From positions 1-64,000 of the forward strand of contig JAECUM010033691.1 of the NCBI GenBank assembly GCA_016617855.1: a stretch of DNA of 64,000 nucleotides, read 5' to 3'. The position numbers were made by a program, and so were the translations under genes. The notes under the pieces are model-generated. The model had not been told where the DNA came from. It was given only the letters and a program-made list of their open reading frames with translations, and ran no database searches. How positions within the stretch are numbered: the first letter of the stretch is position 1; every line of letters starts with the position of its first letter. Of the stretch, positions 24,684 to 43,137 are shown one piece after another. Origin of the DNA: Megalonaias nervosa. Its lineage: Eukaryota > Mollusca > Bivalvia > Unionida > Unionidae.

Positions 24684-25070
24684 AGTAGTGGCTGAGGGCG
24701 GTATAGGGTCACATTGGGTCTAATTTTAAATTTGATCGTTTTCACTATGGGGTCAAAATTTATAGGGTCAGATAGACTTCTATGTTAAATTTGATCGTTT
24801 TTACTATGGGGTCAAATGGGACTTTAACATGGGCCACTCTAGGGTCAATGGGAATTGATGTCACGGTATTGGACACTGTCTGTAGCAGACCTCAATTAGG
24901 CAAGGGGCTGACCTGAATACACGCTACTTAAGGGACAAACAGAGACGTAGACATATGACACAAACTTAGATTTATGAACATAAATCTATCATACAAACAT
25001 CCACTAAAAACATTTAGGCAAGGGAGAATAGGTATCTTTTCGAGGTAATGGAGTGGCCCTGGAAAGGGCC
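24684..25070 (+). repeat. left terminal inverted repeat of the Polinton
   Basis: About 390 bases matched in reverse complement at 43099-43513. Its outer part holds two copies of a 30-base unit (AAATTTGATCGTTT, then ACTATGGGGTCAAA). The inner part includes GGGACTTTAACATGGGCCA and AGGGTCAATGGGAATTGA. The inner border is the hairpin at 25055-25070, whose partner sits at the same place in the right repeat. A truncated third copy of the repeat, lacking about the first 110 bases, starts near 30612. Confidence 0.85.
25055..25070 (-). terminator. histone-type 3' hairpin, left end
   Basis: On the minus strand: GGCCCTTTCCAGGGCC, a perfect 6-bp stem with a 4-base loop, preceded by CTAAA and followed by ACTCC. 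A purine-rich TCGAAAAGATA follows 11 bases after the hairpin. This matches the replication-dependent histone mRNA signal (hairpin bound by SLBP, then the element bound by U7 snRNA). It lies 45 bases after the stop codon of the minus-strand gene at 25115. Confidence 0.65.
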
Positions 25071-25114
25071 TTTAGTTTTGTTTTGTCAACACCATTCAGT
25101 TAACACAGAGGGCA

Positions 25115-25466
25115 TCACACGGATCTTCTTCTTTTCCTCAAACTTCGTCTGACCTCTGGGCCTTAGACAAAGCTCTCTTCAGACAGCCGGGCCTCTCCAC
25201 ATACATTCTTCATTTCCAAAAGACTGTATCAGTCATCTGGATAATTGCCCATAATGATTTGACATATATGGGATAGTCCGGGTTGAACAGATTGACGATA
25301 CGAGGGAAGACGATTCTACGTTGGTCCACATTTTGTAACGAGAACAGCTTAATGGAATGAGGTAACCGAGGTTATTTATAGTGGAAGAGCAGATCGAAAC
25401 AGATTGAATTCGTTCACCAATCCTAACACGCTTTACAAACTTCAGAGTGCGGAGACTGTCTTCCAA
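25115..25466 (-). pseudogene. left-terminal minus-strand gene, copy I
   Basis: A short gene transcribed toward the left end. The last frame reads GNYPDD, KNVCGEARLSEESF, a stop, then GPEVRRSLRKRRRSV and TGA at 25117-25115. The equivalent frame in the second arm ends KNLCGEARLSEDSLIYGPEVR (30980). Upstream in another frame both arms share a GYLIP-x-SCSRYK segment, so at least one frameshift is present. The basic C-terminus suggests nucleic-acid binding, but no family is recognised. The stop is 45 bases before the hairpin. Confidence 0.4.
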
Positions 25467-25497
25467 TCTGAAGAGCTTCCTGCAACGTCACACTCCC

Positions 25498-25504
25498 TAT
25501 ATAG
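25498..25504 (+). promoter_or_regulatory. TATA box of the left coiled-coil gene, copy I
   Basis: TATATAG, 68 bases before the ATG at 25566. It is conserved in place and sequence in the second arm (31340-31346). Confidence 0.45.
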
Positions 25505-25565
25505 ATGTGCTAGCCTCTATGCACAGAGAATCAATGGGACAGAGTTAGAAGATGACGGAAAGACG

Positions 25566-26149
25566 ATGAATTGGAGTGCACCGGCCGTGGAGACAAGAAG
25601 TGATGGCATAGCAGCGACTACCAAAGCAAACACAGTCTTATATCCAGAAGAAAACGATTTTAATTGAGATGTAATTTATTTGCGCTCTTTTTTGCAAGAA
25701 TGTGTTCTGGTACCAGAACCTTCGCCGCCTTCTCCTTCCTTACAGCAAGTCGAGGATTTTAAACAGAGACAGAAAGAAAACTTGGAGAAATTTTTGCAAT
25801 AGCAGAAAGAAGCAGAATAAGCCTTTCTCATTTAACAGCAACAGCGAGAAGAAGAGGCAAGAAAAACACGACAGGAAGAAGAAGAAGAAGAGAAGCAGAA
25901 AAGAAACAAGGTCTAGGAGAGAAGGAGGATGGTGAAAGTCAAACGATGACGGTACTCTTGGACATTTTGGCAGAGTTAAGGAGTCTGAAAGAAATGTATC
26001 AGACTTCTTTAATACGACCCAAGGGAAAAAGACCTTATAAAGCCAAACATTTCAACCCTGTCTACACACCAACTACACCTGAGATACAAACACAAGTGGT
26101 TTCTACCAAATCAGCGTCAGTAGCCGTAGCAAAGGGACAAGGCAGTTAA
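25566..26149 (+). pseudogene. left-arm charged coiled-coil gene, copy I
   Basis: Start ATG 25566: MNWSAPAVETRSDGIAATT, then ENDFN and a TGA where the second arm has TGG (ENDFNWDLTDFV). Further on come VEDFKQRQKENLEKFLQ and a run of QQQREEEARKTRQ and Glu/Lys. The last frame reads TMTVLLDILAELRSLKEMYQ, a proline-rich tail, and the stop at 26147-26149. The length would be about 190 residues: a short conserved head, a Gln/Glu/Lys coiled coil and a leucine-rich helix. Function unknown. The histone-type hairpin begins 60 bases after the stop. Several stops and frame changes break it. Confidence 0.5.
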
Positions 26150-26208
26150 AGCTTGTTACTTCCCCTTCCTAAGTTTTTTCTTTTTAACCAAGAAAACAAA
26201 CACCCAAA

Positions 26209-26247
26209 GGTCCTTTTCAGGGCCACCCATCTCTCTCGAAAAGAGAC
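26209..26247 (+). terminator. histone-type 3' hairpin and U7-type element (best copy)
   Basis: CCCAAA, then the hairpin GGTCCTTTTCAGGGCC (26209-26224), then ACCCA. The stem pairs over six positions with one G-T pair and the loop is TTTC. The histone consensus is CCAAA, GGCTCTTTTCAGAGCC, ACCCA, so the flanks agree as well as the stem. CGAAAAGAGAC follows at 26237-26247, 12 bases after the hairpin, where histone pre-mRNAs carry the U7 target. Confidence 0.75.
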
Positions 26248-26539
26248 TACTCAATGATTGCCAAAATCAATTAAAAGTCAAAATCCCTTTATCCCCCATG
26301 ATGGACGTGTATGATTGCAGAGTGTAGGTCCTTATTTATAAAAATCAAAACCAAGAGACACTTCCATTATTCTTCCTGGTATATTCTCTGGTACAAATTT
26401 ACAATCCAATTTCACAACAGATCACTTTAAAAAGTTCATTTTTTTCTTTGTCTATTCACTCCCTCCTGCTTTTGAATTTCTTCACTGTCATGGGTTTATC
26501 CTCTTCTTCCTCACTTTCTTCTCATTTTCGATTCTTCTC

Positions 26540-27019
26540 TTTCTTCTCTTTCTGGACGTGTCTAGGTTCTTCCTTTTCGGAAGGTACCTCTTCTTCATGT
26601 TCAGAATCCCTCTACCTTTTGCTCTTGTTGTTTCTTAGGGCATTCTGAAGACCAATGTCCTTTCTCTTGACAATATAACTGGTATGTTGACCTTCGTCTC
26701 TGTTTACGCCTGTCTTGCTGTGACGTTGTGGACATTCTGAAGACCAATGCCATTTCTTCTGACAGATATAGCAAGCATCTTGACTTTTATCTCGAAAGGA
26801 GGGGGAGTAGTCCGTTGACTTCTCTGAAGAAAACCTTCGTATGGCACGTCGCAAAGCTCTGATCAGAAGTTCGACATGTCTTGGCTCTTCCATCTTTCTG
26901 GTAGGACTGAGAATGAAATGAATACTCTGAGGAAGGCACTGACCCTTCATATAGGGAAGACACTGACCGTACATTGATATAAAGGGGAGTATGGCGTTTA
27001 AAATGTAGCCATCTGACAT
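26540..27019 (-). pseudogene. zinc-knuckle gene of the Polinton, copy I
   Basis: ATG 27019. The N-terminus is MSDGYILNAILPFISMYGQC and continues with LIRALRRAIRRFSSEKSTD. A CCHC knuckle follows: CYICQKKWHWSSECP (C-x2-C-x4-H-x4-C). A second knuckle (CQEKGHWSS type) is present in another frame near 26650, and the C-terminal part is Glu/Lys-rich. CCHC knuckles usually bind single-stranded nucleic acid and are typical of retroviral Gag; I do not know them as a standard Polinton feature. The second arm carries the same gene at 32270-32737. It is read opposite to the polymerase, with which it shares an upstream region. Confidence 0.55.
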
Positions 27020-27093
27020 TTTGCAATCAAGATGAAATGATCACATCATTTCGTGAAGATAGGAGAAGAAATTAAGAGGCAGAAATGTGACCT

Positions 27094-29148
27094 ATGCAAG
27101 TGGGACAATTGCAGTGTAAAGATTCGATGAGTTACTTGGCCATGACTTTGAGTCGAAAGCTTACAACATTTGGAATGACAGCCAAAGGCTATTTTCCGCA
27201 CTTTTTCAATACCAAAGCTACTGTTCTGCCCCATTTGAATGATGCTCACTACTACGACCCCGACAACATGCGCACTGAACACCGAGAAGCTTTCTACGCT
27301 TGGTACGACACTTACGCTTCGGACCCCTTTGACTTTCAGGAAGAAATGTTAAGGTATTGTCGTTCCAACGTGGACATTTTACGGCGATGCTGTGGAAAAT
27401 TTAGAGATTTGTTCATGGATCGATTCAGTGAAGAAAGCCTGCACCATTACCAAAGCGTGTTCCTTGGTGTTCTGCAAACGATTTATACCCTAGAAGACCG
27501 ATTGGCTATCATTCGCCCTTAAAAATTTGTCAAACGTCATTATTCAGTCAAAGTCTTAAGCTGGCTACATTACTAATGCTACAAGGAAGACAAATGGATT
27601 TAAAATGCCAGAAAAGATGAAGTGAAAAGACCATCTGAACGTATTCGGTGGATTGCTGGAACATAGAAAACCCTAAGATATTGTACGGGTTTAACAGTTG
27701 ATTATTTCATGGATATCCGATCTGCTACATTCACCATGACATTAAAAATAAATTTTTACACCGTACCATGGAAGACTTGTACAATGCTATTTGACAGTGG
27801 CGCTTGATTTAGAACACAAGGATACAAAGAGGTGAGAATGTGGGAATACGAGTACGATCACCGTTTGAATACCGATCCCGAGCTTAAAACGCATCGTGGA
27901 AAGTTACAAGCTCTGAAACCACGGGACAGTTTGTATGGAGGATGGACGAATGTCACCTGTTTGCTGTACCACTCTGAGGAAGAGAAAGAAGAAGAAATCA
28001 AATACTTGGACTATGTTCCCTGTGTCACTAGGTGTGCAAATCTTGTCAATTTCCTGCAGTGCACCCTCAATTACTGACGCAGCTCATCAACCTGGACAAC
28101 ATTCGACAATGTGAAGGACTGATTAAATGTAAAGTCTTGGCTCCCACGGACTTGTACCATCCAGTTTTACCTCACCATTGCCAGGGAAAACTATTGTTTC
28201 CCTGGTGCCGAACTTGTGCCGAAACGTGCAACCAAGACCAACCTTGTTAGCACATCCAGGAAGAACAAGCCTTGAGAGGAACATAGGTCAGTGTAGAATT
28301 GTTCAAAGCTCTGGACGTGGGATACCAAAAGTTAGAAGTGTACGAAATTTACCACTTTTGCAAGATAGAACAGTACCTCAAGATTGACGAGACTCAGAAA
28401 GGCATTTTCACATTGCTTGTGGGGCAAAATGGTACAATGGCTGTGTTTACCTAAGATGGAGTATTTGACAGAATCTTCCCGCTACTTCAAGATCATTCAT
28501 GAAAAAACCAAACACATGAAACACATGGACGTCCTTCGTGAGGACTTGATCTTAGTCAATTACAAAGAAGTCAATTACAAAGAAGAATTGGACTTTGTAG
28601 AAGCCGACGAATTTGGAAATGTCATCATTGCAGCCTACTTGACAGCCCATTCTCGCGTAAAATTGTACGAAGCTCTACACCAATTAGGAGATTGTGTGTT
28701 GTATTTTGACAAAGAAAGTTGCATCTACATCGATCGCCTGGGTCACCGACACCCTGGCATCGAAAGAGACCGTTTAGGAGCCTGGTCGGAGGAGCACCCC
28801 AACGTAAAGAGTTTAAGTTTTGCTAGTGGCTACGAATACCGGGACCACCAAAACGAAGTGCACACCGAGTGTAAAGTGAAAGAACTGACTCTTGATTATC
28901 TCACCAGTCAAATTGTGAACATTGGGGCCTTGCAGTCTGGAGAGGATCAAGAGTTTAAAGTGACCACCTACCAACCTCACAAGATTGAACGTTTAGACAC
29001 ACACCAAATCGTCAGTCGGCCTTTGGAAAAAAATATATCAGATCATGTGCCAGAAGTGTCCCAACCATTTCACTTTACCTTACGGACACTTCGATATTGG
29101 TCAGCATATAAAAAGGGAAAACGTCCAAGACCGATAGTTCAATCCTAA
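27094..29148 (+). pseudogene. protein-primed DNA polymerase B, copy I (N-terminal part deleted)
   Basis: Replicates the element DNA by protein priming. Visible parts: KGYFPHFFNT and YCRSNVDILRRCC (exonuclease III region) at 27094-27522; the frame with MWEYEYDHRL and EIKYLDYVPCV (motif A, DxxSLYP in the second arm, changed here) at 27832-28077; and an intact 254-codon C-terminal frame at 28384-29148. That frame has AYLTAHSRVKLYEAL and VLYFDKESCIYIDRLG, which is motif C (usually YxDTDS, here DKES). The first exonuclease block, present in the second arm, is missing here: the sequence jumps from the 5' leader directly to about the middle of the exonuclease domain. Many stops; not functional. Confidence 0.75.
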
Positions 29149-29387
29149 CAAAACAGACACCATTCAAGTTCGGTGATTCTCAAGTGAAGTGCGATGCTGT
29201 GCCTTGCGATTGCAGGGATGCAGACCGCTGTCACCTCAGTGATTCAGTACCACATCATGGGAACTTTGCTATGACTACTATTACTACGACAGTACCTATC
29301 ATGGAAACTGATGCTGTGCGTGTCAAACCTGATGGATGCTCAATGGTCTCCGCACTGTCACTACCTACCTTATGTGGGACAACCTCA

Positions 29388-29733
29388 GTAATCTCTTTAT
29401 GGATACTTTATAAGAGAACATTTGTGGTTTGCCTGTGGAGTTGAAAGAATGCAATTTTATTGAGAGTTTGTCAAAATACAAGTCAAACACAAAGAACTGT
29501 TGCATCCGTTACGTCACCAATGTTGGAACCACTGGTACCAGAATGCTATAACAGGACAGATTCATTTGAAAGCGTTCCAACTGTCAGACATTGATCAACT
29601 ACCCAAGGGTCAGAAGAGAGATCTGGTATGTTACAGGGTTTACTGGATTTATCCAAGCATGATCTGTCCTATTTACTCCACTGTGAACCCTTCCACGATG
29701 CGTGATGTCTTTAATCAAATTGATACAACATAG
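29388..29733 (+). pseudogene. conserved small ORF after the polymerase, copy I
   Basis: Counterpart of the cleaner copy at 35838-36160. Here MDTL is followed by a stop, then ENICGLPVELKECNF, and after a frame change QLSDIDQLPKGQKRDL. Function unknown; see the second copy. Confidence 0.4.
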
Positions 29734-29794
29734 AGACAATCAGTGGTGACGCTTTCCACTATAAAAAAACACCTGGGGCAAACAATGATGTCAC

Positions 29795-30060
29795 CTAAAA
29801 GAAGTGTACACCACACCATCACCATCGTTGTTCTCCTGTCCAGAAAGGAAAAGGAAAAAGAAAAGGACAGTCTCATCATTTGACCCGGCATCCGAAAAAA
29901 CGCTTAGCCAAGCATTGACATCTATCCCAGAAAAGACACAGTCGTCCAAGGAAAAAGAGAATCAAAGGGGAGGATTGTTTGGCGATATTTGACAAAAAAT
30001 GTGGTCACATTTTTGATGAAGTGATAGTAAAAAAGACTGGTTCCAAACCCTTCGACCTAC
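29795..30060 (+). pseudogene. basic His/Lys/Arg-rich protein, copy I
   Basis: The frame contains KRSAHHTHHHRSPVQKGKGK and RHPKKRLAKH, then FDKKCGHIFDEVIVKKTGSK. It is strongly basic, as expected for a DNA- or RNA-binding virion or core protein. It is broken by stops and repeated at 36265-36545. No family assigned. Confidence 0.4.
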
Positions 30061-30109
30061 TCCAAAACTAAGATAAATGGGCGTGTGCCAAGTCATCAAC
30101 TTCAGCGTA

Positions 30110-30559
30110 CTTTTTGTATGTGCCCTGGAACAAAGAAAGAGGTCACCCCCAGAAACTGTCCCTCTTCTACCCGCAAAGGAAAGAAAAGAAACGGACTCCC
30201 TACTCGTTTAGCAAAACATTGGGATGTGTTGTCCGTCCTGTCCAAAACCCCTCCACCAATGTGAAAACAACTTATTAAAACTGCCTCCAAAGACGTCGTC
30301 GATACCTGTGCGAATGCTGCCTGAATGTCTTGAAAGGAATGATACTTTTGTCTCAACATAAAAAAGAATGATAGCCAAGCATCGACACATTCTTCGCCAA
30401 ACGGTCAAAAAGAAAAGACCCATCCGTCAAAAGAAAAAGATGTTGGTACAACGCGGAGGATTTGTGCACCTGTTGTTAGCACCTATACTTAAAGCCACAT
30501 TGGCACCACTGATTACAGGTCTCGTGGGAGCTACTGCTACACAAATGGCTCAAAGATAA
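30110..30559 (+). pseudogene. Polinton core-type protein with LVQRGGF motif
   Basis: Frames across two shifts read FSKTLGCV, then CECCLNVLKGMILLSQHKK, then KHRHILRQTVKKKRPIRQKK and MLVQRGGFVHLLLAPILKAT with a hydrophobic end. I know this order (a CEC-x-LNVL-G helix, a basic middle, then LVQ-(R/K)-GGF and a hydrophobic tail) from a small protein encoded by Polintons and related elements. Its role is probably structural or DNA-associated; this is not proven. It is present only in the left arm: in the second arm the sequence passes directly to the proline-rich ORF and integrase. The last 63 codons are an intact frame. Confidence 0.5.
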
Positions 30560-30899
30560 AAAGGATCAAGAAGCTAAAAGGGGTCTCTGGGGTGAAAAGA
30601 TCTCAGACGTTCGATCGTGTGCACTATGGGTAAAATGGGACTTTAACATGGGCCATTCTAGGGTCAATAGGAATTGACGTCACGGTACTGGACACTGGCA
30701 ACAATACTGCAAGTGTCTGACCTCAATCGGGCTGAACAGAGTGGCAAGGGGCTGACCTGAATACGCGCTACTCTAGGGACAAATAGAGACATAGACATAT
30801 GGCACAAACTGAGATTTATGAACATAAATCTGTCACACAAAAATCGACTAAAAACATTTAAGGCAAGAGAGAATAGATATCTTTTCAAGATAATGGAGT

Positions 30900-30915
30900 G
30901 GCTCTGGAAAGGGCC
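30900..30915 (-). terminator. histone-type 3' hairpin, second arm, minus strand
   Basis: Minus strand: CCAAA, GGCCCTTTCCAGAGCC, ACTCC, with one mismatched pair in the stem. TTGAAAAGATATC follows as the U7-type element. It sits 64 bases after the stop of the minus-strand gene at 30980. It is the counterpart of the hairpin at 25055. Confidence 0.55.
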
Positions 30916-30979
30916 TTTGGTCTTTTTGTTAACACCACTCAGTTAACATAGAGGACATTCTTCTCCTCTACCTCAAACT

Positions 30980-31165
30980 TCATCTGACCTCTGGGCCGTA
31001 GATAAGGCTGTCTTCAGACAGCCGTGCCTCTCCACACAGATTCTTCGTTTCCAAAAAGCTGTAACAGTCATCTGGGTAATTGCCCACGATGATCTGACCT
31101 ACATGGGATAGTCCGGGTTGAACAGCATCGACAATATGAGGGTAGACGATTCTACGTAGGTCCAC
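30980..31165 (-). pseudogene. left-terminal minus-strand gene, copy II
   Basis: A 61-codon frame beginning MDLRRIVYPHIVDAVQPGLS, then VGQIIVGNYPDDCYSFLETK and GEARLSEDSLIYGPEVR. It matches copy I at 25115-25466 and ends 16 codons earlier because of a CGA to TGA change. An upstream part (YLIPFTCSRYKVWTYVESS) is in another frame. Function unknown. Confidence 0.4.
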
Positions 31166-31339
31166 ACCTTGTAACGAGAACAGGTGAATGGAATGAGGTA
31201 ACTGCGGTTATTTTTAGTGGAGGAGCGGATTGAAACGGATTGAGTTGTTTCACCAATCCTAACACGCATGACAAAATTCAGTCAGAGTGCGAAGTCTGTC
31301 TTCCAATCCGAAGAGAGCTGCCTGTAACATAACATTCTC

Positions 31340-31346
31340 TATATAG
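31340..31346 (+). promoter_or_regulatory. TATA box of the left coiled-coil gene, copy II
   Basis: TATATAG, 69 bases before ATG 31415, matching the box at 25498. Confidence 0.45.
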
Positions 31347-31414
31347 GTGCTCTAGCAACTGTGCACAGGGAATCAATGGGGCAGAGTTAGAAGATCACGG
31401 AAACTAAGAAGACG

Positions 31415-31900
31415 ATGAAATGGGGTGCACCGGCCATGGAGACGAGAAGTGATGGCATAGCAGCGATTACCAAAGCAAACACAGTCCTACTTCTAGAAGA
31501 GAATGATTTTAATTGGGATTTAACTGATTTTGTTAACACCACCTTCTCCTTCCTTAGAGTACGTTGAGGATTTTAAACAGAGACAAAAAGAAGAATTGGA
31601 GACATATTTGGAACAGCAGAAAGAAGCAGAACAAGCCTTTTTCATCCAACAGCAACAGCGAGAAGAAGAAGAGGCAAGAAGAACATAAGTCAAACGGTGA
31701 CAGTACTCTTAGACATTTTGGCAGAGTTAAGGAGTCTGAAAGAAATGCTTCAGACTTCTTTAATATGACCCAATAGACAAAGACCTTCCCAAGCCAAACA
31801 TTCCAACCCCGTCCATTCACCAACCACGACTGAGATACCAACACTAGTGATTTCTACCAAATTATCAACAGTAGCAAGTCCAGAAGTCAACCCTTCCTAA
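31415..31900 (+). pseudogene. left-arm charged coiled-coil gene, copy II
   Basis: ATG 31415: MKWGAPAMETRSDGIAAITK, ENDFNWDLTDFV, then in another frame VEDFKQRQKEELETYLEQQK and QQQREEEEARRT. The last frame reads TVLLDILAELRSLKEMLQ, with TAA at 31898-31900. It is shorter than copy I because part of the Glu/Arg-rich run is missing. The hairpin starts 37 bases after the stop. Confidence 0.5.
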
Positions 31901-31936
31901 GTTTGTTTTTTAAAACCAAGAAAACAAACACCCAAC

Positions 31937-31975
31937 GGTCCTTTTCAAGGCCACCCATCTCTCTCGAAAAGAGAC
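31937..31975 (+). terminator. histone-type 3' hairpin and U7-type element, second arm
   Basis: GGTCCTTTTCAAGGCC (31937-31952) followed by ACCCA and CGAAAAGAGAC (31965-31975). It has one mismatch in the stem compared with the copy at 26209. Flanks and downstream element are unchanged. Confidence 0.6.
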
Positions 31976-32269
31976 TACTCAATGTTTGCCAAAATCAATT
32001 AAAACTCAAAATTCCCTTTTCCCCCATGGTGGACGTTATCAGTGCGTGAGTGTAGGTCCTTATTATAAAAATCAAAACAAAAAGACACTTCCATTTTTCT
32101 TTCTGGAATATTCTCTGGTACAAATTTGCAATCCAATTTCACAACAATATCACTTTAAAAAGTTCATTTTTTCTTTGTCTATTCACTCTCTCCTGTTTTT
32201 GAATTTTTTCTTTGTCACAGGATTTTCCTCTTCCTCCTCACTTTCTTCGTGTCTTCTTTTCTTCTCTTT

Positions 32270-32737
32270 CTGGACATGTCTGGGTTCTTCCTTTTCGGAT
32301 GGTACCTCATCCTCCTGTTCGGAACCCCTCTACCTTTTGCTCCTGTTGTTTCTTAGGACAGCCTGAAGACCAATGTCCTTTCTCTTGACAATGATAACAG
32401 GTATCTTGACCTTTGTCTGTTTACGCCTGCCTTCCTTTGATGTTGTGGACATTCTGAAGACCAATGCCCCTTCTTCTGACACATATGGCAAGTATCTTGA
32501 CTTTTATCTCGAAAGGTGGGGGAGTAGTCCGTCGGCTTCTCTGAAGAAAAAACCTCGTATGACACCTCGCAAAGCTCTGATCAGAAGTTCGATGTGTCTT
32601 GGCTCTTCCATCTTTCTGGTAGGACTGAGAATGAAATGAATACTCTGAGGAAGGCACTGACCCTTCATATAGGGAAGACACTGACCGTACATTGATATAA
32701 AGGGGAGTATGGCGTTTAAAATGTAGCCATCTGACAT
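32270..32737 (-). pseudogene. zinc-knuckle gene of the Polinton, copy II
   Basis: ATG 32737 with the same first 20 residues as copy I (MSDGYILNAILPFISMYGQC) and a frameshift near 32550. The first knuckle is CHMCQKKGHWSSECP. The second, CYHCQEKGHWSSGCP, is in the next frame near 32370, followed by an acidic/basic tail rich in Glu and Lys. Two arms retaining both knuckles support a real gene. See copy I for interpretation. Confidence 0.55.
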
Positions 32738-32872
32738 TTTGCAATCAAGATGAAATGATCACATCATTTCGTGAAGAAAGGAGAAGAAAGTAAGAGGCAG
32801 AAATGTGACCTATCGCCTCGCACAGTAGCTTAAGTCTTGGCTCAAATTCATGCCAGCGATTTCGAAGATGAC

Positions 32873-35604: not shown

Positions 35605-35837
35605 CTCCTACTACTACAATATCTAGCTTGGAAAAGTGATGTTATGCATGTCAAACCTGACGGAATTAGCTAGATCCGGACATATCGACTTGGACGAAGG
35701 TGATAAAGTCAAGTACTTCAGTTGCGGTGTGTCACTACACCAGTGGAAATAGAAAGATTCAGCTTACCTGCAACATTCTTGATAGTCTCCGCACTGTCAC
35801 TACCTACCTTTAGTGAGACGACCTCAGTATTCTCTTG

Positions 35838-36160
35838 ATGGATACTTTACAAGAGAACATTTGTGGTTTGCCTGTGGAGTTGAGAGAATGCATTTACCAA
35901 ACGTTTGTCAAAATACAAGTCAAACGCAAAGAACAATTCCATCCGATAAGTCATCAATGTTGGAACCACTGCTACCAGAATGCTATAAGAGGACTGATTC
36001 ATTTGACAGCGTTCCAATTGTCAGACATTGATCAACTACCCAAGGGTCAGAAGAGCGATCTGGCATGTTACAGAGTTTACTGAATTTATCCAAGCACAAA
36101 CTGTCCTGATTTAGTATGTTGCGAACCCCTCAACAACGTGTGTAATGCCTGTAATCAATC
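35838..36160 (+). pseudogene. conserved small ORF after the polymerase, copy II
   Basis: ATG 35838: MDTLQENICGLPVELRECIY, then VKRKEQFHPISHQCWNHCYQ, NAIRGLIHLTAFQLSDIDQL and PKGQKSDLACYRVY, with a stop at 36081-36083. Past the stop the frame still reads IYPS, CPDLVCCEPLNNVCNACNQS, so the original protein probably ended with another CxxC pair near 36160. The Cys/His pairs suggest a metal-binding protein of about 105 residues. Both arms keep it, so it is a real gene of this Polinton lineage. I cannot name its function. Confidence 0.5.
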
Positions 36161-36264
36161 TGATACGACATAGAGACAATCAGTGGCGATGCATTCCACT
36201 ATAAAAAAAAACACCTGGGGCAAACGATGCATATCAGTATTTTTGTGCTCCGGAACAAACAAAG

Positions 36265-36545
36265 ATGTCACCTAAAAGAAGTGCACACCACACCAACACC
36301 ATCATCGTTCTCCTGTCCAAAAAGGAAAAGGAAAAAACAAGGACAGTCTCGTCGTTTGACCCGGCATCCGAAAAAACGCTTAGCCAAGCATCGATGTCTA
36401 CCCCATGAAAGACACAGTCGTCCAAAGAAATAGAGAATCAACCAATATTGGCGATATTGAAAAAAATGTCACATTTTTGACGAAGCGATTGTCAAAGAGT
36501 TTGTAAAAAAGACAGGTTCCAAATCCTTCTACCTACTCCAAAAAT
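36265..36545 (+). pseudogene. basic His/Lys/Arg-rich protein, copy II
   Basis: Frames contain MSPKRSAHHTNT or, shifted, KRKRKKQGQSRRLTRHPKKR and LAKHRCLPHERHSRPKK. The end reads VKEFVKKTGSKSFYLLQK. It is basic throughout and probably binds nucleic acid. It is broken and matches copy I at 29795. Confidence 0.4.
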
Positions 36546-36558
36546 AAGATAAAAGGGC

Positions 36559-36867
36559 ATGTGCCAAGTTATCGACATCAGTAAGACCCTGATGAATAGT
36601 CCACCACCACCACCACCACCCACAGTGACCAAGACAGAAAAAGGAGAAGAAGAGTTTCAAATTCCACTAGACAAATTAAGCAAGTTGACACCAACATCCA
36701 CAATTGTTTCAATTAAAAAGATGATGGCAACACCTTCTTCCTCGGAAGAGAAAAGGAAGATTAAGACACAAGTTAAACAAGAACTGAATACCCCTGTTCA
36801 GACATCCTCCTTGACACCTATTGCTCATCGGACATGCCAAGAAAATACCACACAACGAAAAGAGTAG
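36559..36867 (+). CDS. proline-rich ORF upstream of the integrase, unrecognised
   Basis: An intact 102-codon frame: MCQVIDISKTLMNS, seven prolines, then TVTKTEKGEEEFQIPLDKLS and a Ser/Thr/Lys-rich hydrophilic rest. It may be an accessory protein or the disordered part of a longer broken gene. No family recognised. The integrase begins only about 20 bases later. Confidence 0.35.
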   Translation: MCQVIDISKTLMNSPPPPPPPTVTKTEKGEEEFQIPLDKLSKLTPTSTIVSIKKMMATPSSSEEKRKIKTQVKQELNTPVQTSSLTPIAHRTCQENTTQRKE

Positions 36868-36884
36868 CATCCGTGAAGAGTGGG

Positions 36885-38010
36885 TAACTTTATTTTAAAA
36901 AAGTCCTAATTGAGAATTTGTTAGCCAGCATTTGCTACGATCAATCCCATCCTGCGGGATCCTATGGAGTTCGGAAATTGTATCGTGCTGCCAAAACCTG
37001 ACAGAAAAGTGTCTGTTTACCTCAAGTGCAACTATGGTTACAAGAACAAGCCACATTCACCTTCCACAAACCCATTCGACACAAATTTTCTAGAAATTGC
37101 ACACGAGTGGATGGCAACGATCATCAGTGGCAAGCCAATTTAGCTGATGTCTCTCATTTGGCCACCTACAATCATGCAACAAATATTTGTTTTGTGTCAT
37201 CGACGTCTTTACCAAATTTGCCTGTGTCATGCCATTGACTTCCAAATCAAACACTGAGTTAGTGCAATCTCTAAAATTGGTGTTGAAAGAAAGTGGTCGT
37301 CACTCTCTTCGATGGCAAACCAACAATTGCACTAAATTTCTGAACCAATCTTTCCAAAAAGAATTAAAGAAACGAGACATTCATTTTTTCACCAACAAGA
37401 ATCCAGAAACCAAAGCCAGCATCATAGAACATTTTCAACTCACCTTGAAAGAACGCATGTGGAAATATTGTATGCATCAACACATTCTCAAGTACATCGA
37501 TGTCTTACCACACCTCATCAAAGCATGCAACCAATCTTACCATTCGAGCATTGGATGTGCCCCCCAAGAAGTGACTCCCGACAACGAAGTGACCGTCTTT
37601 GAGGGATGTTTGGTATGTCCCCGACTGTGGCTGTCCGAAAGAAAGGTGGAGATTGGGTGCGCAGTGGTAAAACCAAACGCACTTTCGACAAAGATTACTT
37701 ACCCAACTGGACTGCCGAATTGTTTCGTGGCACTGGACGATTGCGTGGCCGTCATCCTGACGTCTATAAATTGGAAGACATGAACGGGGAAGTGTTAAAA
37801 GCAACGTTCTACTCGCCCGAGTTACAATGCATGACCAAATAAAGAAGACGAAGTGTACGACATCGAAAACATTCTTGACCGAAGAACCCGTAAAGTGGGA
37901 ATATGTCGTGTCAGTGAAGTAAAAATACACTGGAAAGGTTATCTGCTGAGTTTTGACTCTTGGATCGATGCTTAGGAAGTCATTGACTATAAAAAAGTGA
38001 CCATCATGAG
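36885..38010 (+). pseudogene. Polinton integrase with C-terminal chromodomain, inactivated
   Basis: A retrovirus-type DDE integrase that inserts the linear element. Visible in order: PTFATINP/LRDPMEFG region (36.9 kb); TFTFHKPIRHKFSRN; WQANLADVSHLATYN, where the first catalytic Asp (usually QADL) is Asn; CVIDVFTKFACVMPLTSKSN; RWQTNNCTKFLNQSF, where the second Asp (usually TDKGTEF) is Asn; and ETKASIIEHFQLTLKERMW, where Glu is kept. Then comes RTFDKDYLPNWTAELF and, near 37.85-38.0 kb, the chromodomain YDIENILDRRTRK with VKIHWKGYLLSFDSWIDA and a stop. At least three frame changes separate the blocks. The central 198-codon frame (37187-37783) is open. Confidence 0.8.
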
Positions 38011-38653
38011 CTTCAACACAGCCTCAACCACCAGTTTCCACTTCTTCACAGAGTTCTTCTCTGCAAGATCTACAAAAGTAACCCTTGTGGGTGTGATGTG
38101 GAGAACGTGTGCCTAAAATGCGAATCGTCTTTTTCTGCCAAATCTTTGTGGCGTATTGCTTTATCGATGCTGCCATTGCCAATTTGAGTTTGCAACAAGG
38201 AGACAAACAATTGTGGACCATTTTACTAAGCAGTTGTATCGACTACCCTCTCCCCAATCCTTCCTTGAAATATTCTAACGGTAACAACAGGAGTCTTGAG
38301 CCCAATGTCAGTCACCCTCCCAACAGTCACCACCAAACCAACAACAAGGATTAAATTTGATCTTTGTGTACTCTGATGTGGTGGAGTACAACGTGGTGGG
38401 ACACACATCTGTACCATTACTGCGAATCATTCCTTTCAAAGTAGATTCTGACAAAACCAATGACGAGGAAGGTGGAAACAGCTATCACGTTCACTGCAAC
38501 TTTGTACATCCTCACTATTTGCCCATTAGTAAGTCGTATTTTGACAGTGTTAACATTGCTATAAAAGGAGAACTGGGGCAAAATATTCCATTCTCCAAAG
38601 GAAAAGTTACGGTGAAACTCCATTTTCGAAAACGATTCTCTAACGATTTGTAA
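38006..38653 (+). pseudogene. penton-like minor capsid protein of the Polinton
   Basis: ATG 38006 (MSFNTASTTSFHFFTEFFSA) starts just past the integrase end. After frame changes the C-terminal part is an open frame: LIFVYSDVVEYNVVGHTSVP, then LLRIIPFK, PHYLPISKSYFDSVNIAIKG and NIPFSKGKVTVKLHFRK. The final pattern (F-x-x-(I/V)-x-I-x-I, IPF-x-x-GKV-x-V-x-LHF) is that of a jelly-roll strand pair seen in Polinton and adintovirus virion proteins. I take it as the minor capsid (penton) protein. The middle is frameshifted. Confidence 0.5.
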
Positions 38654-38656
38654 GTC

Positions 38657-39078
38657 ATGTATCCTGTGTATCGAGGTGTCACTCGACAGCGTGGACATGG
38701 TTTAGAATATATGCTGAAATCGGTGTTTCGTTCAGTGGCCCCCGTTTTGAAACCGATGGTGACACAAGGATTGCATGCCTTGAAAGATGCCGCTTTGACG
38801 TAAGGCAAAGAATTTCTCCAAAAATCATAGACAAAAAAGAAAAGCCAAAAGAAGCTTTCTTGAGAGCAGGCAAACATGTCTTGCTTCAAACTGACAAAGA
38901 CATTCTGGGTCTACAAGAACCTCCTATAAATGCCCTGGACGCTGTCCAGTCAGCCATTCATGTTTCCCTGAAGCAACAACAAGGACAATGCAGAAAGAGA
39001 TGCCGAAGGCACCCCTCCAGAGGCCTTCACACACCCAGACCTAGAAAGACCAAGAAAAGAAGAACTGTCTGAGAATTA
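38657..39078 (+). pseudogene. small basic core protein (adenovirus pX-like)
   Basis: ATG 38657: MYPVYRGVTRQRGHGLEYML, then SVFRSVAPVLKPMVTQGLHA and LKDAALT, and a stop. Frames go on with KEFLQK and KKKSQKK, and end HPDLERPRKEELSEN near 39078. The head Y-R-G-V-x-R-Q-R-G-H-G and the following amphipathic helix are typical of a small Polinton protein likened to adenovirus core protein X. It lies between the penton-like and major capsid genes, the usual neighbourhood. Confidence 0.5.
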
Positions 39079-39112
39079 GACGTTTTTGATTATTAAATAA
39101 CAGAGAGAAAAA

Positions 39113-39920
39113 ATGATGTACCGAGAGTATTGCGAATGTTTAAAGTCGGAACTGTAACTGTTTGCCATGCCAGCCCGAAGATTACATCGATCTGAATGGC
39201 AGTTACTTCTACCTGAAAGTCAAGTGAAAAAACGGTACGATTCTGCTCCAGGAGCCGATGCTAGAGTAGCTCCCATCAACAATTTCATGCATTCCTTGTT
39301 CAGCGAAGTGGATTAATTTGTATTTGAATAACAAACTAGTCAGCAGCAGCATGGATACTTACCCTTATTGAGCGTATCTGGAAAATCTCTGGAAATACGG
39401 AAAGAATGCAAAGAACACTCATCTGGATGCTTGCGTGGCATGGACACCTGACACAGCAGGGCAGGACAAGTTTAACGACACAGTCCTAACAGCAGTTGAC
39501 GATCCTCACAATGTGGACTTTAACGACCATCGAAAGAAAATCCTGCAAGGATATAGTTTAGAATTGATGGATCATTTGCATTTGGACATCTGGTTGCATG
39601 GACATCTGGTTGCAAGAAAAGTATTTGCTGAACGGGGTGGATATCCACTTGAGACTGAATTGTAGCAGTACCGTTTTCCATTTGATGGCCAATGTCAACG
39701 AGTACAAAACTATCATTCAAGAAGCCAGACTCTACGTACGATTCGTGGAAGTGTTACCTGAAGTAGGAAACGACATCAGCCACACACTGAGCAGAACAAC
39801 CGCCAAGTATCCAATACGATGAGTGGAAGTGAAAACATTCACCATTGTCACTGGGCTCATCTCCGTACAAGCAGTTTTACATCAGTGGTATAAAAACTTG
39901 TGTGATCATTCCTCCCCTCC
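39113..39920 (+). pseudogene. major capsid protein of the Polinton, truncated
   Basis: The double-jelly-roll capsid protein. Blocks on the plus strand in different frames: CECLKSEL then LFAMPA; YIDLNGSYFYLKVK; ADARVAPINNFMHSLFSEVD; LYLNNKLVS with MDTYPY; CVAWTPDTAGQDKFNDT; YLLNGVDIHLRLN; YKTIIQEARLYVRFVEVLP and the TAKYPI-VEVKTFTI strand. This is the family annotated in databases as F54H12.2-like. Length to the last recognised block is about 270 codons, roughly half of the usual protein, so the C-terminal jelly roll is missing. Several frameshifts. Confidence 0.65.
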
Positions 39921-40078
39921 ATTGACTGCTCTAGAGATCCATCTCATCTAATCTCTCTTGACCCAGAGTACGGAGACGGAGAGAAGAGATGATTAGTTGA
40001 CAGAGATTTCTCAAGCAAATATTCAGGACTGAATTGATGACTTATCATTACCTGTGAAAGCAGAAAAAACAAAACAAA

Positions 40079-40460
40079 ATGGATAAATGGAAACTGTGTT
40101 ACCTTTTGAAAAACAGTGCATACATCGCTTCTTGGAATCCTGTCATGTGCGCTAAAGATGAACTTCCTCATCACAAACCTAAAGACTATCAAGCTTATGT
40201 CATCAACACAGACGACAGTCATCTCACAGGAACCCACTGGGTATCCGTCTTCTTTCCCCAGGATGCCTTTGTGTAGCATTTTGATTCTTATGGATTACTG
40301 CCTTTGGAAGACGACATCATCAAAGTTTTGAGAAGAAATGCCCAGACGACATGATTCAATGAATTAAAATTACAAGGCACAGATTCCATGGTGTGCGTAC
40401 AATATTGTGTGTATATTTTTCAACAACACATTCTTGAATATCCTGACAACATTTAGTAAC
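40079..40460 (+). pseudogene. adenovirus-type cysteine protease of the Polinton
   Basis: Matures virion proteins in related viruses. ATG 40079: MDKWKLCYLLKNSAYIASWN, later YQAYVINTDDSHLTGTHWVS (catalytic His) and VFFPQDAFV, then a TAG in place of a codon, HFDSYGLLPLEDDIIKVLRR, and SMVCVQYCVYIFQQHILEY. The Cys block is usually CGQYC; the Gly is Val here. Two stops interrupt the frame. Position after the capsid gene fits the family. Confidence 0.75.
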
Positions 40461-40683
40461 TTATTTTGATCATGACTCTTCTACAAACGAAGAAAAAGTA
40501 GATAGATGGTTTTGTGACCATTATGGATATCTCGTTGGTTAGGAAACATAGTGTACATCAATGGCCAAATGACGTCCATCAGTGGAAGTCAAACTTGAGT
40601 TCACAACACTGTCAACCTTGTCAGAAATGTGTTATTTAATATTGCATGAATATTCATATTATATGTGGGCTAATTGTTGGTTG

Positions 40684-40689
40684 AATAAA
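40684..40689 (+). terminator. polyadenylation signal after the protease
   Basis: AATAAA in an AT-rich stretch 220 bases after the protease gene, with a GT-rich run following (GATTGTTGGTGGTTTG). The large genes may end here, in contrast with the hairpin-ended small genes. Confidence 0.4.
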
Positions 40690-40852
40690 AATGTTATGAA
40701 AAAATGATTGTTGGTGGTTTGTTTTTAAAAAATTTTGTTTTCGCTATCTACGCTCTTTGACTTCTCTCTCTATCCCTAATCATGAGACGAGCTATTGCAT
40801 TAATACCCAAAAAAGATCGTAGGGATTTTTTCTATTGCGTCCACACTTGAGC

Positions 40853-40862
40853 CATACAAAAG
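40853..40862 (+). promoter_or_regulatory. TATA-like box of the first right-arm charged gene
   Basis: CATACAAAAG, followed by CAGTCTGACC and TTATCAACC before ATG 40913. The arrangement resembles that before ATG 41643 (CATAAAAG, CAGTCTGG, AGTCAACATT) and ATG 42694. Confidence 0.4.
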
Positions 40863-40912
40863 GGGGCTGTCTCCAGTCTGACCATCCACTGTTGACTTAT
40901 CAACCTATAAAG

Positions 40913-41260
40913 ATGTTTTCAAGACTAGCTAAGCCAAACAAAGCCCACTTGAATTTACATCATGTCAGGCAAAACCCGATACCCAAGCCTGAGGAAACAG
41001 AGAATGTCAGGATGTTAAAAGTGGCCTAAGAGCTGATAGAAGAGGTTTTTAAAGATGAAATAAAGGAGCAAGAAGAATGGACCGAGAAGTACAGACTTCA
41101 GAAACAGCAGAGACAACAGCAACAGCAACAACAGCAGGAGCCAGGCAGAGGTTTTGTGGACTGCTGTGTAGACATGAAAGAGTTCTCCTTCTCCTTCCAA
41201 AGAAGCAGGCCCTATCCTTTGGGAAAGCCTGCAGCCAGACGGGGACGCAATCTTAGATGA
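40913..41260 (+). pseudogene. right-arm charged gene 1 (Gln-rich coiled coil)
   Basis: MFSRLAKPNKAHLNLHHVRQ, then NVRMLKVA, one in-frame TAA, ELIEEVFKDEIKEQEEWTEK, a run of glutamines, CCVDMKEFSFSFQRSRPYPL and ARRGRNLR, ending TGA 41258-41260. One base change separates it from an open 116-codon frame. Basic head, charged helix, basic tail; perhaps a nucleic-acid-bound virion protein, but this is a guess. The histone-type hairpin begins 30 bases after the stop. Confidence 0.5.
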
Positions 41261-41289
41261 CAAGAGATTGCCATAACCCCAACAAAACA

Positions 41290-41331
41290 GCCCTTTTCAG
41301 GGCAACCCAAAACAATCTGGAAAAGAGATAG
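41290..41331 (+). terminator. histone-type 3' hairpin and U7-type element, right arm 1
   Basis: GCCCTTTTCAGGGC (41290-41303), five perfect pairs and loop TTTC, followed by AACCC and GGAAAAGAGATAG (41319-41331) 15 bases later. Confidence 0.65.
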
Positions 41332-41583
41332 TTGTGAAATTGCCAAAATCTGTCTGTCTTTGTGTGTTGGTAAGTTAAAAAATTGAAGTATGCTTATTAA
41401 CACTTCATTTCTTTTAATATAGTGTGTGTATTTTATATGTATGAGTGATAATAAAGTGTGTTTGTAGGAAAAAAGTGAACGTGAGTCTATCTTTTAGGTC
41501 CGAGCGTTCCATGATATTGATGATGGAGTGGGTATTGTTACTTTTTGTGCAAGGAGTATTTTCCTTCATGTCCATGCTTCAGG

Positions 41584-41591
41584 CATAAAAG
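41584..41591 (+). promoter_or_regulatory. TATA-like box of the second right-arm charged gene
   Basis: CATAAAAG, then GTTCGTCAGTC 14 bases on. The same GTTCGTCA-TC follows the TATA box at 42642. ATG is 59 bases downstream. Confidence 0.5.
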
Positions 41592-41642
41592 CGTAGAGTT
41601 CGTCAGTCTGGATACCCATCGTTCACTAGTCAACATTCAAAA

Positions 41643-42041
41643 ATGAGCAGAATCAGCAAACTGTTGGAGCTTCAGATGCACCTGGAGTATGTCAGGTGAA
41701 TCCTGCATGAGCTGGCTATGGAGGCGATCCAGGAGAAAGCCAGAATTGAAGAAGAGGAGGAGGAGAAGAATAACGAAGAGAAGAGTACAATGCCACCTCA
41801 CCTCATCCTTAGAGCAAGTTGTGAGGCGAAACCTATGGTGAGGACACCTCCACAGTGCCAAGCACCACTGCCACCAATACTACCAGCACCAAGCCCTGTG
41901 GATCCCCAGACAGAAAATTGGGAAGAAGAACTGGAGAGGCAGAGACATGAATGGGAGCCTCAGCAACCACAGCATCCACGGGAGCAGAATAGAAGAAGCA
42001 GGCAAGAACAAGTCCTCACCATCCCTCAAACGAAGGAATAA
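41643..42041 (+). pseudogene. right-arm charged gene 2 (Glu/Pro-rich)
   Basis: ATG 41643: MSRISKLLELQMHLEYVR, a TGA, then ILHELAMEAIQEKARIEEEE in the same frame, a proline-rich middle (LPPILPAPSPVDPQTENWEE) and QRHEWEPQQPQHPREQ, ending TAA 42039-42041. Another frame open to about 42164 may be the original C-terminus. It has a leucine-rich helix and a charged tail like its neighbours. Function unknown. Confidence 0.45.
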
Positions 42042-42180
42042 GATAGTAAAACTACTCAAGCTGCCTCCACACTCCCAACCACACACATCAATTGGGAACA
42101 AGACTGGAGTCGGCAATGTGTCTGTGGTGCTGGCCTGGGAGGTGTCACCATTAACCAGGTGCATCTGAAGTGGAAAAAAC

Positions 42181-42218
42181 AGTGCTTCTCAGGGCTAACC
42201 AGATCTTTAGAAAGAGCT
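42181..42218 (+). terminator. decayed histone-type 3' hairpin, right arm 2
   Basis: AGTGCTTCTCAGGGCT (42181-42196) pairs at five of six positions, is followed by AACC, and then TAGAAAGAGCT at 42208-42218. It is the weakest of the seven but in the expected place. Confidence 0.4.
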
Positions 42219-42641
42219 ACTGATCAAGTTGCCAAAAAATATTCATGTGTGTGTTTGTGTACGCGTACATATGTGTATTTTTTTGTGTTTGTACACGTAC
42301 GTGTATTCTTGTGTTTATGTGCATACGTGTGTGTGGGTCTTTTTTCCCTTAACAAACCCCTTGTCCCTACATTCACGAGTGTTTGTTTTGTGTGAATGTG
42401 AAGTAGTGTCACTATAAACAATAACTTCTTTGCTGATGTGATTGTAAGTAATGGTGTGTTTTGTACATAAAATATTTCCTTCTCCAACTATGTATTGATA
42501 GAAAGTATAGTGGTTTTGTTAGTATTAGTGTTCTGTTTTGTACAAAAATTTATTTTAGGTTAGCACTCTCATCCCTGTCGATTATTTGGCATGTGATATG
42601 AATAGTTGGTAAGATGGGATGTTTTCCGTCCGTGTTTGAGG

Positions 42642-42650
42642 TATATAAAG
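42642..42650 (+). promoter_or_regulatory. TATA box of the third right-arm charged gene
   Basis: TATATAAAG, then GTTCGTCAATC, then TTCAACATT, before ATG 42694. Shared layout with the boxes at 40853 and 41584. Confidence 0.55.
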
Positions 42651-42693
42651 CACAGCGTTCGTCAATCACTCCGTTCAACATTGAATAAACGAA

Positions 42694-43096
42694 GATGGCC
42701 AGTAACACTGTAGACAAAATAATGAAGTTGTAATAGGTAGTAGATGACCTGGGGATGAGAGAGGAACTGTTGGTGAAAATGGAGTATGGGTGTTATAGTC
42801 CCCATAGAGTGAGGATGGAACTTAATCTGAAGAAGGCAAAGGACAGACTGACAGAGCTGATCAAACAGGAAAAAGAAGAAAAGGAGGACAAAGAGGAAAA
42901 AGAAGAAATGAGAAGAGTGAATGCTAGGTGATAAATGTGGTGGAGAATGAAAAGAGGAAAAAAGAGGAGATAGAGAAGGAAGAAGAGGATGATGAAGAGG
43001 ATGAGAAGAAAAAAAGAAGTACAAGAAGAATGTAGTGGAGAAAATAAGATGTTGGTGGAGGAGAAGAAGAGAGGAGACAAAATAGAAGAAAGTTAA
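42694..43096 (+). pseudogene. right-arm charged gene 3 (Glu/Lys-rich)
   Basis: ATG 42694: MASNTVDKIMKL, two stops, VVDDLGMREELLVKMEYGCY, then LNLKKAKDRLTELIKQEKEE and a long Glu/Lys coiled coil with frame changes near 42930, ending KKRGDKIEES and TAA 43094-43096. The hairpin starts two bases later. It is transcribed toward the right end, as the left-terminal gene is toward the left end. Confidence 0.45.
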
Positions 43097-43098
43097 AA

Positions 43099-43137
43099 GG
43101 CTCTATTCAGGGCCACTCTCTTGCCCGGAAAAGATAT
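43099..43137 (+). terminator. histone-type 3' hairpin and U7-type element, right end
   Basis: AAAA, GGCTCTATTCAGGGCC (43099-43114; six pairs with one G-T), ACTCT, then CGGAAAAGATAT (43126-43137). It forms the inner border of the right terminal repeat, opposite the hairpin at 25055. Confidence 0.65.

What the first reader, a model, noticed from the sequence alone, without database searches (positions are those of the whole stretch)
25036..43137. Histone-type mRNA 3' ends (hairpin plus U7-like element) on Polinton genes
Seen: seven hairpins of 14-16 bases follow stop codons of small Polinton genes by 2 to about 65 bases where the stop is clear. They are at 25055-25070(-), 26209-26224(+), 30900-30915(-), 31937-31952(+), 41290-41303(+), 42181-42196(+, weak) and 43099-43114(+). 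The best, GGTCCTTTTCAGGGCC with CCCAAA before and ACCCA after, agrees with the histone signal in stem, loop and flanks. Each is followed 11-15 bases later by a purine element of the type GAAAAGA. Known: this pair of signals directs SLBP/U7-dependent cleavage of replication-dependent histone mRNAs without poly(A). Inference: the element makes part of its messages, perhaps abundant virion or DNA-binding proteins, as non-polyadenylated S-phase transcripts, tying its cycle to host DNA replication. I know of no report of this for Polintons.
Basis: partly seen in the sequence, partly recalled or inferred. Interest (0 to 1): 0.88.

Follow-up and report, generated by a model that had tools for sequence, protein, structure and literature searches.

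The report
Polintons with histone-style mRNA ends
A virus-like mobile element in an animal-type genome ends several of its small genes with the RNA hairpin and downstream tag that animals use to finish histone messages, repeated thousands of times in that genome, which suggests that the element makes histone-style messages without a poly(A) tail.

Summary
RF00032 finds six of the seven sites (19-29 bits, all under the cut-off of 34; E 9e-5 to 0.42) and no others in the window; the seventh (42181) is weak here but fully paired in another copy. They form four classes: A (inner edge of both inverted repeats, facing outward), B, C, D. GGYCCTTTTCAGGGCCAC occurs 7,596 times in the window's own 2.19-Gb genome, 0 for the reversed control, with element geometry. 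The 30 best RF00032 places (41.6-44.1 bits) show no core histone gene nearby; 27 of 30 match the element outside the signals. Gene A looks like a histone gene: TATAAA 50 bases before ATG (19 of 40 rows), nine full-length 77-aa frames with dN/dS 0.31, the hairpin 26-32 nt after the stop position (28 of 40), GAAAAGA about 13 nt on. The host has SLBP. Host U7 and intact H3/H4 genes were not found, so U7 pairing is untested; there are no RNA data. Best reading: working SLBP/U7-type 3' ends on small Polinton genes; the S-phase link is inference. My paper searches listed no such report.

The parts
24684..43513 (.). Polinton-like element as bounded by inverted repeat arms (24684-24995 against 43179-43513, in pieces)
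   Evidence: the repeat finder I2-I4, 89-92% complementary
25055..25070 (-). class A hairpin, left end, pointing outward
   Evidence: RF00032 25.1 bits
25035..25041 (-). purine element GAAAAGA of class A, 13 nt after the hairpin
   Evidence: sequence; inside the RF00032 match
25100..25331 (-). gene A region (77-aa frame in other copies; broken here)
   Evidence: other copies; window sequence
25375..25380 (-). TATAAA of gene A
   Evidence: position at -50 in 19 of 40 rows of other copies
26209..26224 (+). class B hairpin
   Evidence: RF00032 29.2 bits
26238..26244 (+). purine element GAAAAGA of class B
   Evidence: sequence; inside the RF00032 match
25763..26149 (+). open frame at the end of gene B (gene damaged here)
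   Evidence: frames of 195 and 203 aa in L026 and L040
30900..30915 (-). class A hairpin of the internal duplicate
   Evidence: RF00032 21.2 bits
30880..30886 (-). purine element of the duplicate class A
   Evidence: sequence
31937..31952 (+). class B hairpin of the internal duplicate
   Evidence: RF00032 19.4 bits
31966..31972 (+). purine element of the duplicate class B
   Evidence: sequence
41289..41304 (+). class C hairpin
   Evidence: RF00032 23.6 bits
41320..41326 (+). purine element GAAAAGA of class C, 15 nt after the hairpin
   Evidence: sequence
42181..42196 (+). class D hairpin (weak here, fully paired in L052)
   Evidence: not found by RF00032
42210..42216 (+). purine element GAAAGAG of class D
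   Evidence: sequence
43099..43114 (+). class A hairpin, right end, pointing outward
   Evidence: RF00032 28.2 bits
43128..43134 (+). purine element GAAAAGA, right end
   Evidence: sequence; inside the RF00032 match
42695..43096 (+). right-end gene, coiled-coil-like by eye, broken here
   Evidence: 56% identity to the frame of L067 over 57 aa, 2 stops
28369..29148 (+). piece of family-B DNA polymerase
   Evidence: 64% identical relative P0001 carries PF03175 over cut-off
37148..37783 (+). integrase (rve) piece
   Evidence: PF00665 E 1.3e-5, under its cut-off

Best explanation
The small genes near the ends of this Polinton-like element finish in working histone-type 3' processing signals. Host SLBP binds the hairpin of the nascent transcript; the GAAAAGA element about 13 nt further on pairs with the 5' end of host U7 snRNA; the U7 machinery (CPSF73) cuts between the two. 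That leaves a short, intronless message without poly(A), about 300 nt for gene A, built like a histone message: TATA box, short leader, short frame, hairpin. No such signal was seen near the polymerase, integrase or the other central genes. Because each terminal repeat carries the signal at its inner edge, pointing out, it also gives both ends of the element a compact transcript end. SHOWN: signals, position, orientation, spacing, recurrence, conservation, coding constraint on gene A, SLBP in the host. INFERRED: binding, cleavage, absence of poly(A), and coupling to host DNA replication.
For: RF00032 matches six sites in the element and none elsewhere in the window. In the host genome 66 of 75 scored places pass the gathering score, best 44.1 bits; of the 30 fetched, none showed a core histone gene in the 2.3-3.0 kb held and 27 match the element with all signals masked, 23 over 200 nt or more. 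GGYCCTTTTCAGGGCCAC: 7,596 exact places, reversed control 0. Of the first 100 places, 10 divergent pairs lie 1,167-1,195 bp apart and 14 lie 16.5-21.3 kb apart, against 2 inward pairs. In 35 class-B copies the 16-base windows from hairpin to about +62 are 0.96-0.98 identical, against 0.70-0.73 some 30 nt upstream and 0.875 overall. Cross test: 23 of 26 assessable A-gene ends in B-selected loci keep hairpin and element; 7 of 8 B-gene ends in A-selected loci do. Gene A: nine full-length frames, dN/dS 0.31 over 36 pairs. SLBP RNA-binding domain in two pieces, 67.6 and 39.5 bits. Relic H3 and H4 genes of the host are followed by GAAAGAG elements.
Against: No RNA evidence. Host U7 not found (RF00066 best E 1.84; 10 of 77 pattern matches inspected, none with a U7-like 3' hairpin). 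No intact H3 or H4 gene in the assembly, so the host signal is known only from relics whose hairpins are decayed. Covariation weak. Codon bias of gene B strong with one reference (L040) and absent with another (L026, p 0.26); gene A mixed, second position highest with L024. Indels in gene A are mostly not multiples of three with both references, 24 of 31 and 24 of 43. The B hairpin window itself is exceeded by 74 of 438 windows, and B copies were chosen with DNA that includes the hairpin. AATAAA lies downstream of the C hairpin at 41450, so poly(A) ends are not excluded there. Three of the 30 best places (L075, L078, L083) have no match to the element outside the signal.
Confidence: 0.77

Rival explanations
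1. Inherited relic: one ancestral copy of a histone 3' end was caught by the element, spread by repeat homogenisation and copying, and now has no role in RNA processing.
For: Classes A and B share about 45 nt of signal and A is carried by the terminal repeats; covariation is weak.
Against: The signal outlasts its surroundings in 35 B copies, sits behind several different genes always in the sense direction, usually 26-32 nt after the gene A stop position, and key positions (loop, ACC, GAAAAGA) are kept in most of the 63 copies.
Confidence: 0.12
2. DNA-level site: the hairpins are binding or recombination sites used in replication, integration or packaging, and only resemble the histone signal.
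For: Class A lies at the inner edge of both terminal repeats and the element keeps thousands of copies.
Against: Single-strand features (loop TTTC, AA before, ACC after, purine element on one side only) follow the gene strand in every class; B, C and D are internal and follow gene ends.
Confidence: 0.05
3. Mixed use: transcripts are polyadenylated at signals further on, and the hairpin serves only as an SLBP-bound translation or stability element.
For: AATAAA at 41450 downstream of C; some human histone genes can use either route (PMC9756948, passages read).
Against: The purine element needed only for U7 cleavage is kept in 31 of 35 B and 24 of 28 A copies.
Confidence: 0.06

Closest known systems
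Replication-dependent histone mRNA 3' end (RF00032 stem-loop, histone downstream element; SLBP and U7 snRNP)
   Same: 16-nt hairpin with six pairs and loop TTTC, CCAAA before, ACC or ACT after, purine element about 13 nt on, TATA box, short frame without an intron, hairpin shortly after the stop; relatives score up to 44.1 bits against a cut-off of 34.
   Different: The genes are not histones and belong to a mobile element with thousands of signal copies; U7 pairing and missing poly(A) tail are not shown.
Polintons/Mavericks and adintoviruses
   Same: Inverted repeats, family-B polymerase piece, rve integrase piece, about 20 kb between outward signals.
   Different: Term searches in the main text of two preprints on such viruses found no stem-loop, SLBP or polyadenylation term.
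Animal viruses with histone-like proteins (Histoid genes of adomaviruses and tailtomaviruses, PMC11071296, passages read)
   Same: A virus drawing on histone biology.
   Different: There a histone-like protein is encoded; here only the RNA 3' signal is used, on non-histone genes.

Membership tests
Histone 3' stem-loop (RF00032) | Score over the Rfam gathering cut-off of 34 bits | tested here: inconclusive
   Not met by the window copies, 19-29 bits; met by relatives: L013 35.0 and 66 of 75 scored places, up to 44.1
Histone 3' stem-loop (RF00032) | Six-pair stem, U-rich loop, AA before and ACC after | tested here: met
   35 B copies: 25 with 6/6 pairs, 9 with 5/6, 1 with 3/6; loop TTTC 33; ACC 32. 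28 A copies: 15 with 6/6, 10 with 5/6, 3 lower; loop TTTC 19; ACT 21, ACC 3
Histone 3' stem-loop (RF00032) | Compensatory stem changes | tested here: inconclusive
   64 distinct rows: 1 of 6 pairs, 4 of 384 cells changed on both sides (reached by 21 of 500 shuffles); covariation score reached by 42 of 500
U7-dependent histone processing | Purine-rich element shortly downstream of the hairpin | tested here: met
   GAAAAGA within 26 nt in 31 of 35 B and 24 of 28 A copies
U7-dependent histone processing | Complementarity to host U7 snRNA | tested here: inconclusive
   host U7 not identified
U7-dependent histone processing | SLBP in the host | tested here: met
   PF15247 at C954, 67.6 and 39.5 bits, cut-off 27
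U7-dependent histone processing | Non-polyadenylated end between hairpin and purine element | not testable with these tools
   no RNA data
Replication-dependent histone gene | Encodes a histone | tested here: not met
   tblastn of H2A, H2B, H3, H4 found none in the 30 top loci (no positive control in that call); no histone family for five element proteins
Polinton/Maverick | Family-B DNA polymerase | tested here: met
   window piece 21.9 bits, under cut-off 25.8; 64%-identical relative P0001 at 30.5, over it
Polinton/Maverick | Retroviral-type integrase | tested here: inconclusive
   rve E 1.3e-5, 25.8 bits under cut-off 32.6
Polinton/Maverick | Capsid, protease, packaging ATPase | tested here: inconclusive
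   no Pfam match for the pieces scanned; protease resemblance near 40058-40276 is recalled, from no call

The most novel reading that the evidence does not exclude
A Polinton lineage has turned its accessory genes into replication-dependent, histone-format transcription units, each ending in an SLBP/U7 signal, with both terminal repeats carrying the signal outward. With thousands of exact copies in one genome, its signals outnumber the histone-type ends that this assembly shows for the host; active copies would be expressed in S phase and would draw on the host's histone-processing machinery.
Probability: 0.55. Interest if true: 0.92.

Novelty: new variant of a known kind. Interest (0 to 1): 0.86.

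Why it matters
The SLBP/U7 route is regarded as almost private to replication-dependent histone genes (recalled). A self-propagating DNA element that uses it on several non-histone genes would be a natural test of what that route needs and does, would offer a direct explanation of how such an element times its expression to host DNA replication, and warns that RF00032 hits in animal genomes can be mobile elements rather than histone genes.

Tried and rejected
Host U7: RF00066 over the own genome gave 5 places, best E 1.84. A pattern for a U7 5' end plus Sm site gave 77 matches against 63 for the reversed control. I fetched the 10 of 77 with AATTTGTCTAG; none folds a U7-like 3' hairpin (by eye) and RF00066 reaches at most 18.9 bits. 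L094 reads like an integrase piece of another copy (by eye).

Host histones: H4 gave 7 places, H3 26, none a full-length intact gene. L087, after the best H4 match, shows no hairpin. The downstream pieces of the H3 and H4 relics on C13211 keep purine elements but no clean hairpin. By eye, no contig among the 75 RF00032 places carries an H3 or H4 match. H2A over the genome did not complete; H2B over the genome was not sent.

Viral collections: one IMG/VR pattern scan gave 3 contigs, near-identical phage DNA with the match inside a 289-aa frame; the paired-stem pattern gave 0; an integrase query found no relative.

A second small stem around the purine element: 5-8 bp in 48 of 87 measured copies, 2 bp in 27; not general, not claimed.

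Rows dropped: one search left out L012-L017 (repeat fetches) and partial hits, leaving 35 of 41 B and 28 of 32 A places. Rfam was run on 10 of the larger loci; RF00032 appears in 4 of 10 (L012, L013, L049, L052), not in L050, L051, L053-L056, whose stretches may have missed the element end. My relaxed motif missed 43099. One search had counted 28 of 30 linked loci, but its element pieces still held some hairpins; with all signals masked it is 27 of 30, which replaces it. Five of 15 B-side stretches in the last cross test overlap in origin: L065 and L066 look near-identical.
Full report
CHECK. An independent model of the histone 3' end, RF00032, finds six of the seven in the element and nothing else of that family in the 64-kb window. 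None passes the gathering score of 34 in this decayed copy, but relatives do: L013 reaches 35.0 and 66 of 75 scored places of the host genome pass it, the best at 44.1 bits. The seventh site, 42181, is missed by the model; in another copy, L052, the same place forms all six pairs.

INDEPENDENCE. The seven are four classes. Class A lies at the inner edge of the terminal repeat on both ends, pointing outward (25055-, 43099+), with a further copy in an internal duplication (30900-). Class B lies 1.15 kb inside the left end, pointing right (26209+, and 31937+ in the duplication). C (41290+) and D (42181+) follow two further genes near the right end. Classes A and B share about 45 nt of signal while their genes differ.

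GENOME-WIDE. The window's own assembly (2.19 Gb, 54,709 contigs) could be searched. The exact 18-mer GGYCCTTTTCAGGGCCAC occurs 3,741 + 3,855 times; the reversed pattern 0 + 0. Among the first 100 listed places, 37 pairs lie under 25 kb apart on one contig: 10 divergent pairs at 1,167-1,195 bp (A and B in the window: 1,154), 14 divergent pairs at 16.5-21.3 kb (two outward ends), 10 same-direction pairs at 15.6-19.9 kb, one at 1,331 bp, and 2 inward pairs. I hold the 30 best of the 75 scored RF00032 places (41.6-44.1 bits). tblastn with four core histones found no histone gene in the 2.3-3.0 kb held around each (that call had no positive control, though the H3 and H4 queries found relics elsewhere). 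With all signals of the window masked, 27 of the 30 match the element, 23 of them over 200 nt or more; L059, L070, L080 and L081 only over 47-77 nt; L075, L078 and L083 not at all. The other 45 places were not fetched.

ANATOMY. Class A is regular: TATAAA exactly 50 bases before ATG in 19 of 40 rows, at 38-70 in 7 more, not seen in 14. Nine copies give a full-length 77-aa frame without stop or gap (eight with the TAA stop, L008 without); their dN/dS is 0.31 (mean dS 0.376, dN 0.118, 36 pairs). In 28 of the 40 A-gene ends with a hairpin it starts 26-32 nt after the stop position (range 11-66). Gene B is open over 195 aa in L026 and 203 aa in L040, stops 69 and 53 nt before the hairpin. Codon-position counts are 560/767/957 with L040 and 643/683/702 with L026 as reference; for gene A 218/349/323 with L024 and 268/287/371 with L020, so coding constraint rests mainly on dN/dS of gene A. 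No Pfam family reaches its cut-off for A, B, the right gene and two further pieces. The C-terminus of A is rich in arginine and lysine, B and the right gene look like coiled coils (by eye).

CONSERVATION. In 35 class-B copies, 16-base windows from the hairpin to about +62 are 0.96-0.98 identical, against 0.70-0.73 some 30 nt upstream and 0.875 on average; 74 of 438 windows exceed the hairpin window. In 28 class-A copies the hairpin is 0.91 against 0.78 on average, 31 of 481 windows higher. The B copies were selected with DNA that includes the hairpin, so I ran a cross test. In loci selected by the B signal, 26 A-gene ends could be assessed (one more was too short): 23 keep a hairpin of at least 5 of 6 pairs and the purine element, 3 (L022, L033, L042) do not; two of the 23 are the window's own. 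In 8 loci selected by the A signal that hold a B-gene end, 7 keep the B signal, L063 does not; L065 and L066 look near-identical. Covariation is weak: the basal pair changes G-C to A-U in classes C and D, the others vary on one side or only by unpaired cells. A sequence-constrained protein site would look so, but it is no positive proof of structure.

HOST MACHINERY. The SLBP RNA-binding domain is present in two pieces on one strand of contig C954 (67.6 and 39.5 bits, cut-off 27). U7 was not found. Relic H3 and H4 genes on C13211 are followed by AAGAAAGAGAT and GGAAAGAGC, the same kind of element as GAAAAGAGA (B), GAAAAGATA (A) and GAAAGAGCT (D). For orientation: the U7 5' end pairs with the downstream element, CPSF73 cuts between hairpin and element, and the mouse H2a purine core is AAAGAG (PMC7026596, passages read).

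MECHANISM. I hold that transcripts of the small accessory genes are finished by the host's SLBP/U7 machinery. Shown: signals, geometry, conservation, coding constraint on gene A, SLBP. Inferred: binding, cleavage, no poly(A), S-phase timing. The outward signals at both repeat edges would also end transcription before the host flank.

LITERATURE. 'histone stem-loop' with 'polinton': 0 papers; 'histone-like stem-loop' with 'virus': 0. Three further searches listed 4 of 4, 14 of 14 and 10 of 118 papers, none of which reports this in the titles and abstract starts shown. Term searches in two preprints found no stem-loop, SLBP or polyadenylation. The library is open-licence PMC only, so a report elsewhere is possible.

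VERDICT. Observation confirmed, and far more widespread than the window shows; interpretation supported at the sequence level, open at the RNA level.

Noticed in passing
window 24.7-30 kb vs 30.6-36.4 kb: The element holds a second, 81-97% identical copy of its left part, with A and B units and polymerase pieces: an insertion into, or recombination with, another copy.
   Followed up: partly
window, downstream of hairpins 26209, 41290, 42181: After the purine element, classes B, C and D share TTGCCAAAA within the conserved stretch; its role is unknown.
   Followed up: no
L061, L063-L066, just after the hairpin: There the purine element forms loop and 3' arm of a second small hairpin of 8 bp; in 27 of 87 measured copies only 2 bp.
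   Followed up: partly
G000, 16 contigs, e.g. C52996:11622-11705: Dispersed matches to residues 3-30 (or 4-30) of histone H3, 79-89% identity, in frames of 39-51 aa; perhaps another repeat that carries an H3 tail.
   Followed up: no
L075, L078, L083: Three of the 30 best RF00032 places match neither the window's element outside the signal nor a core histone.
   Followed up: no
window 25498-25503 and 31340-31345: A palindromic TATATA lies between the divergent A and B genes and could serve both strands.
   Followed up: no
window 56629-56693(-): tRNA match of 30.6 bits that ARAGORN does not list; possibly a tRNA-derived repeat.
   Followed up: no
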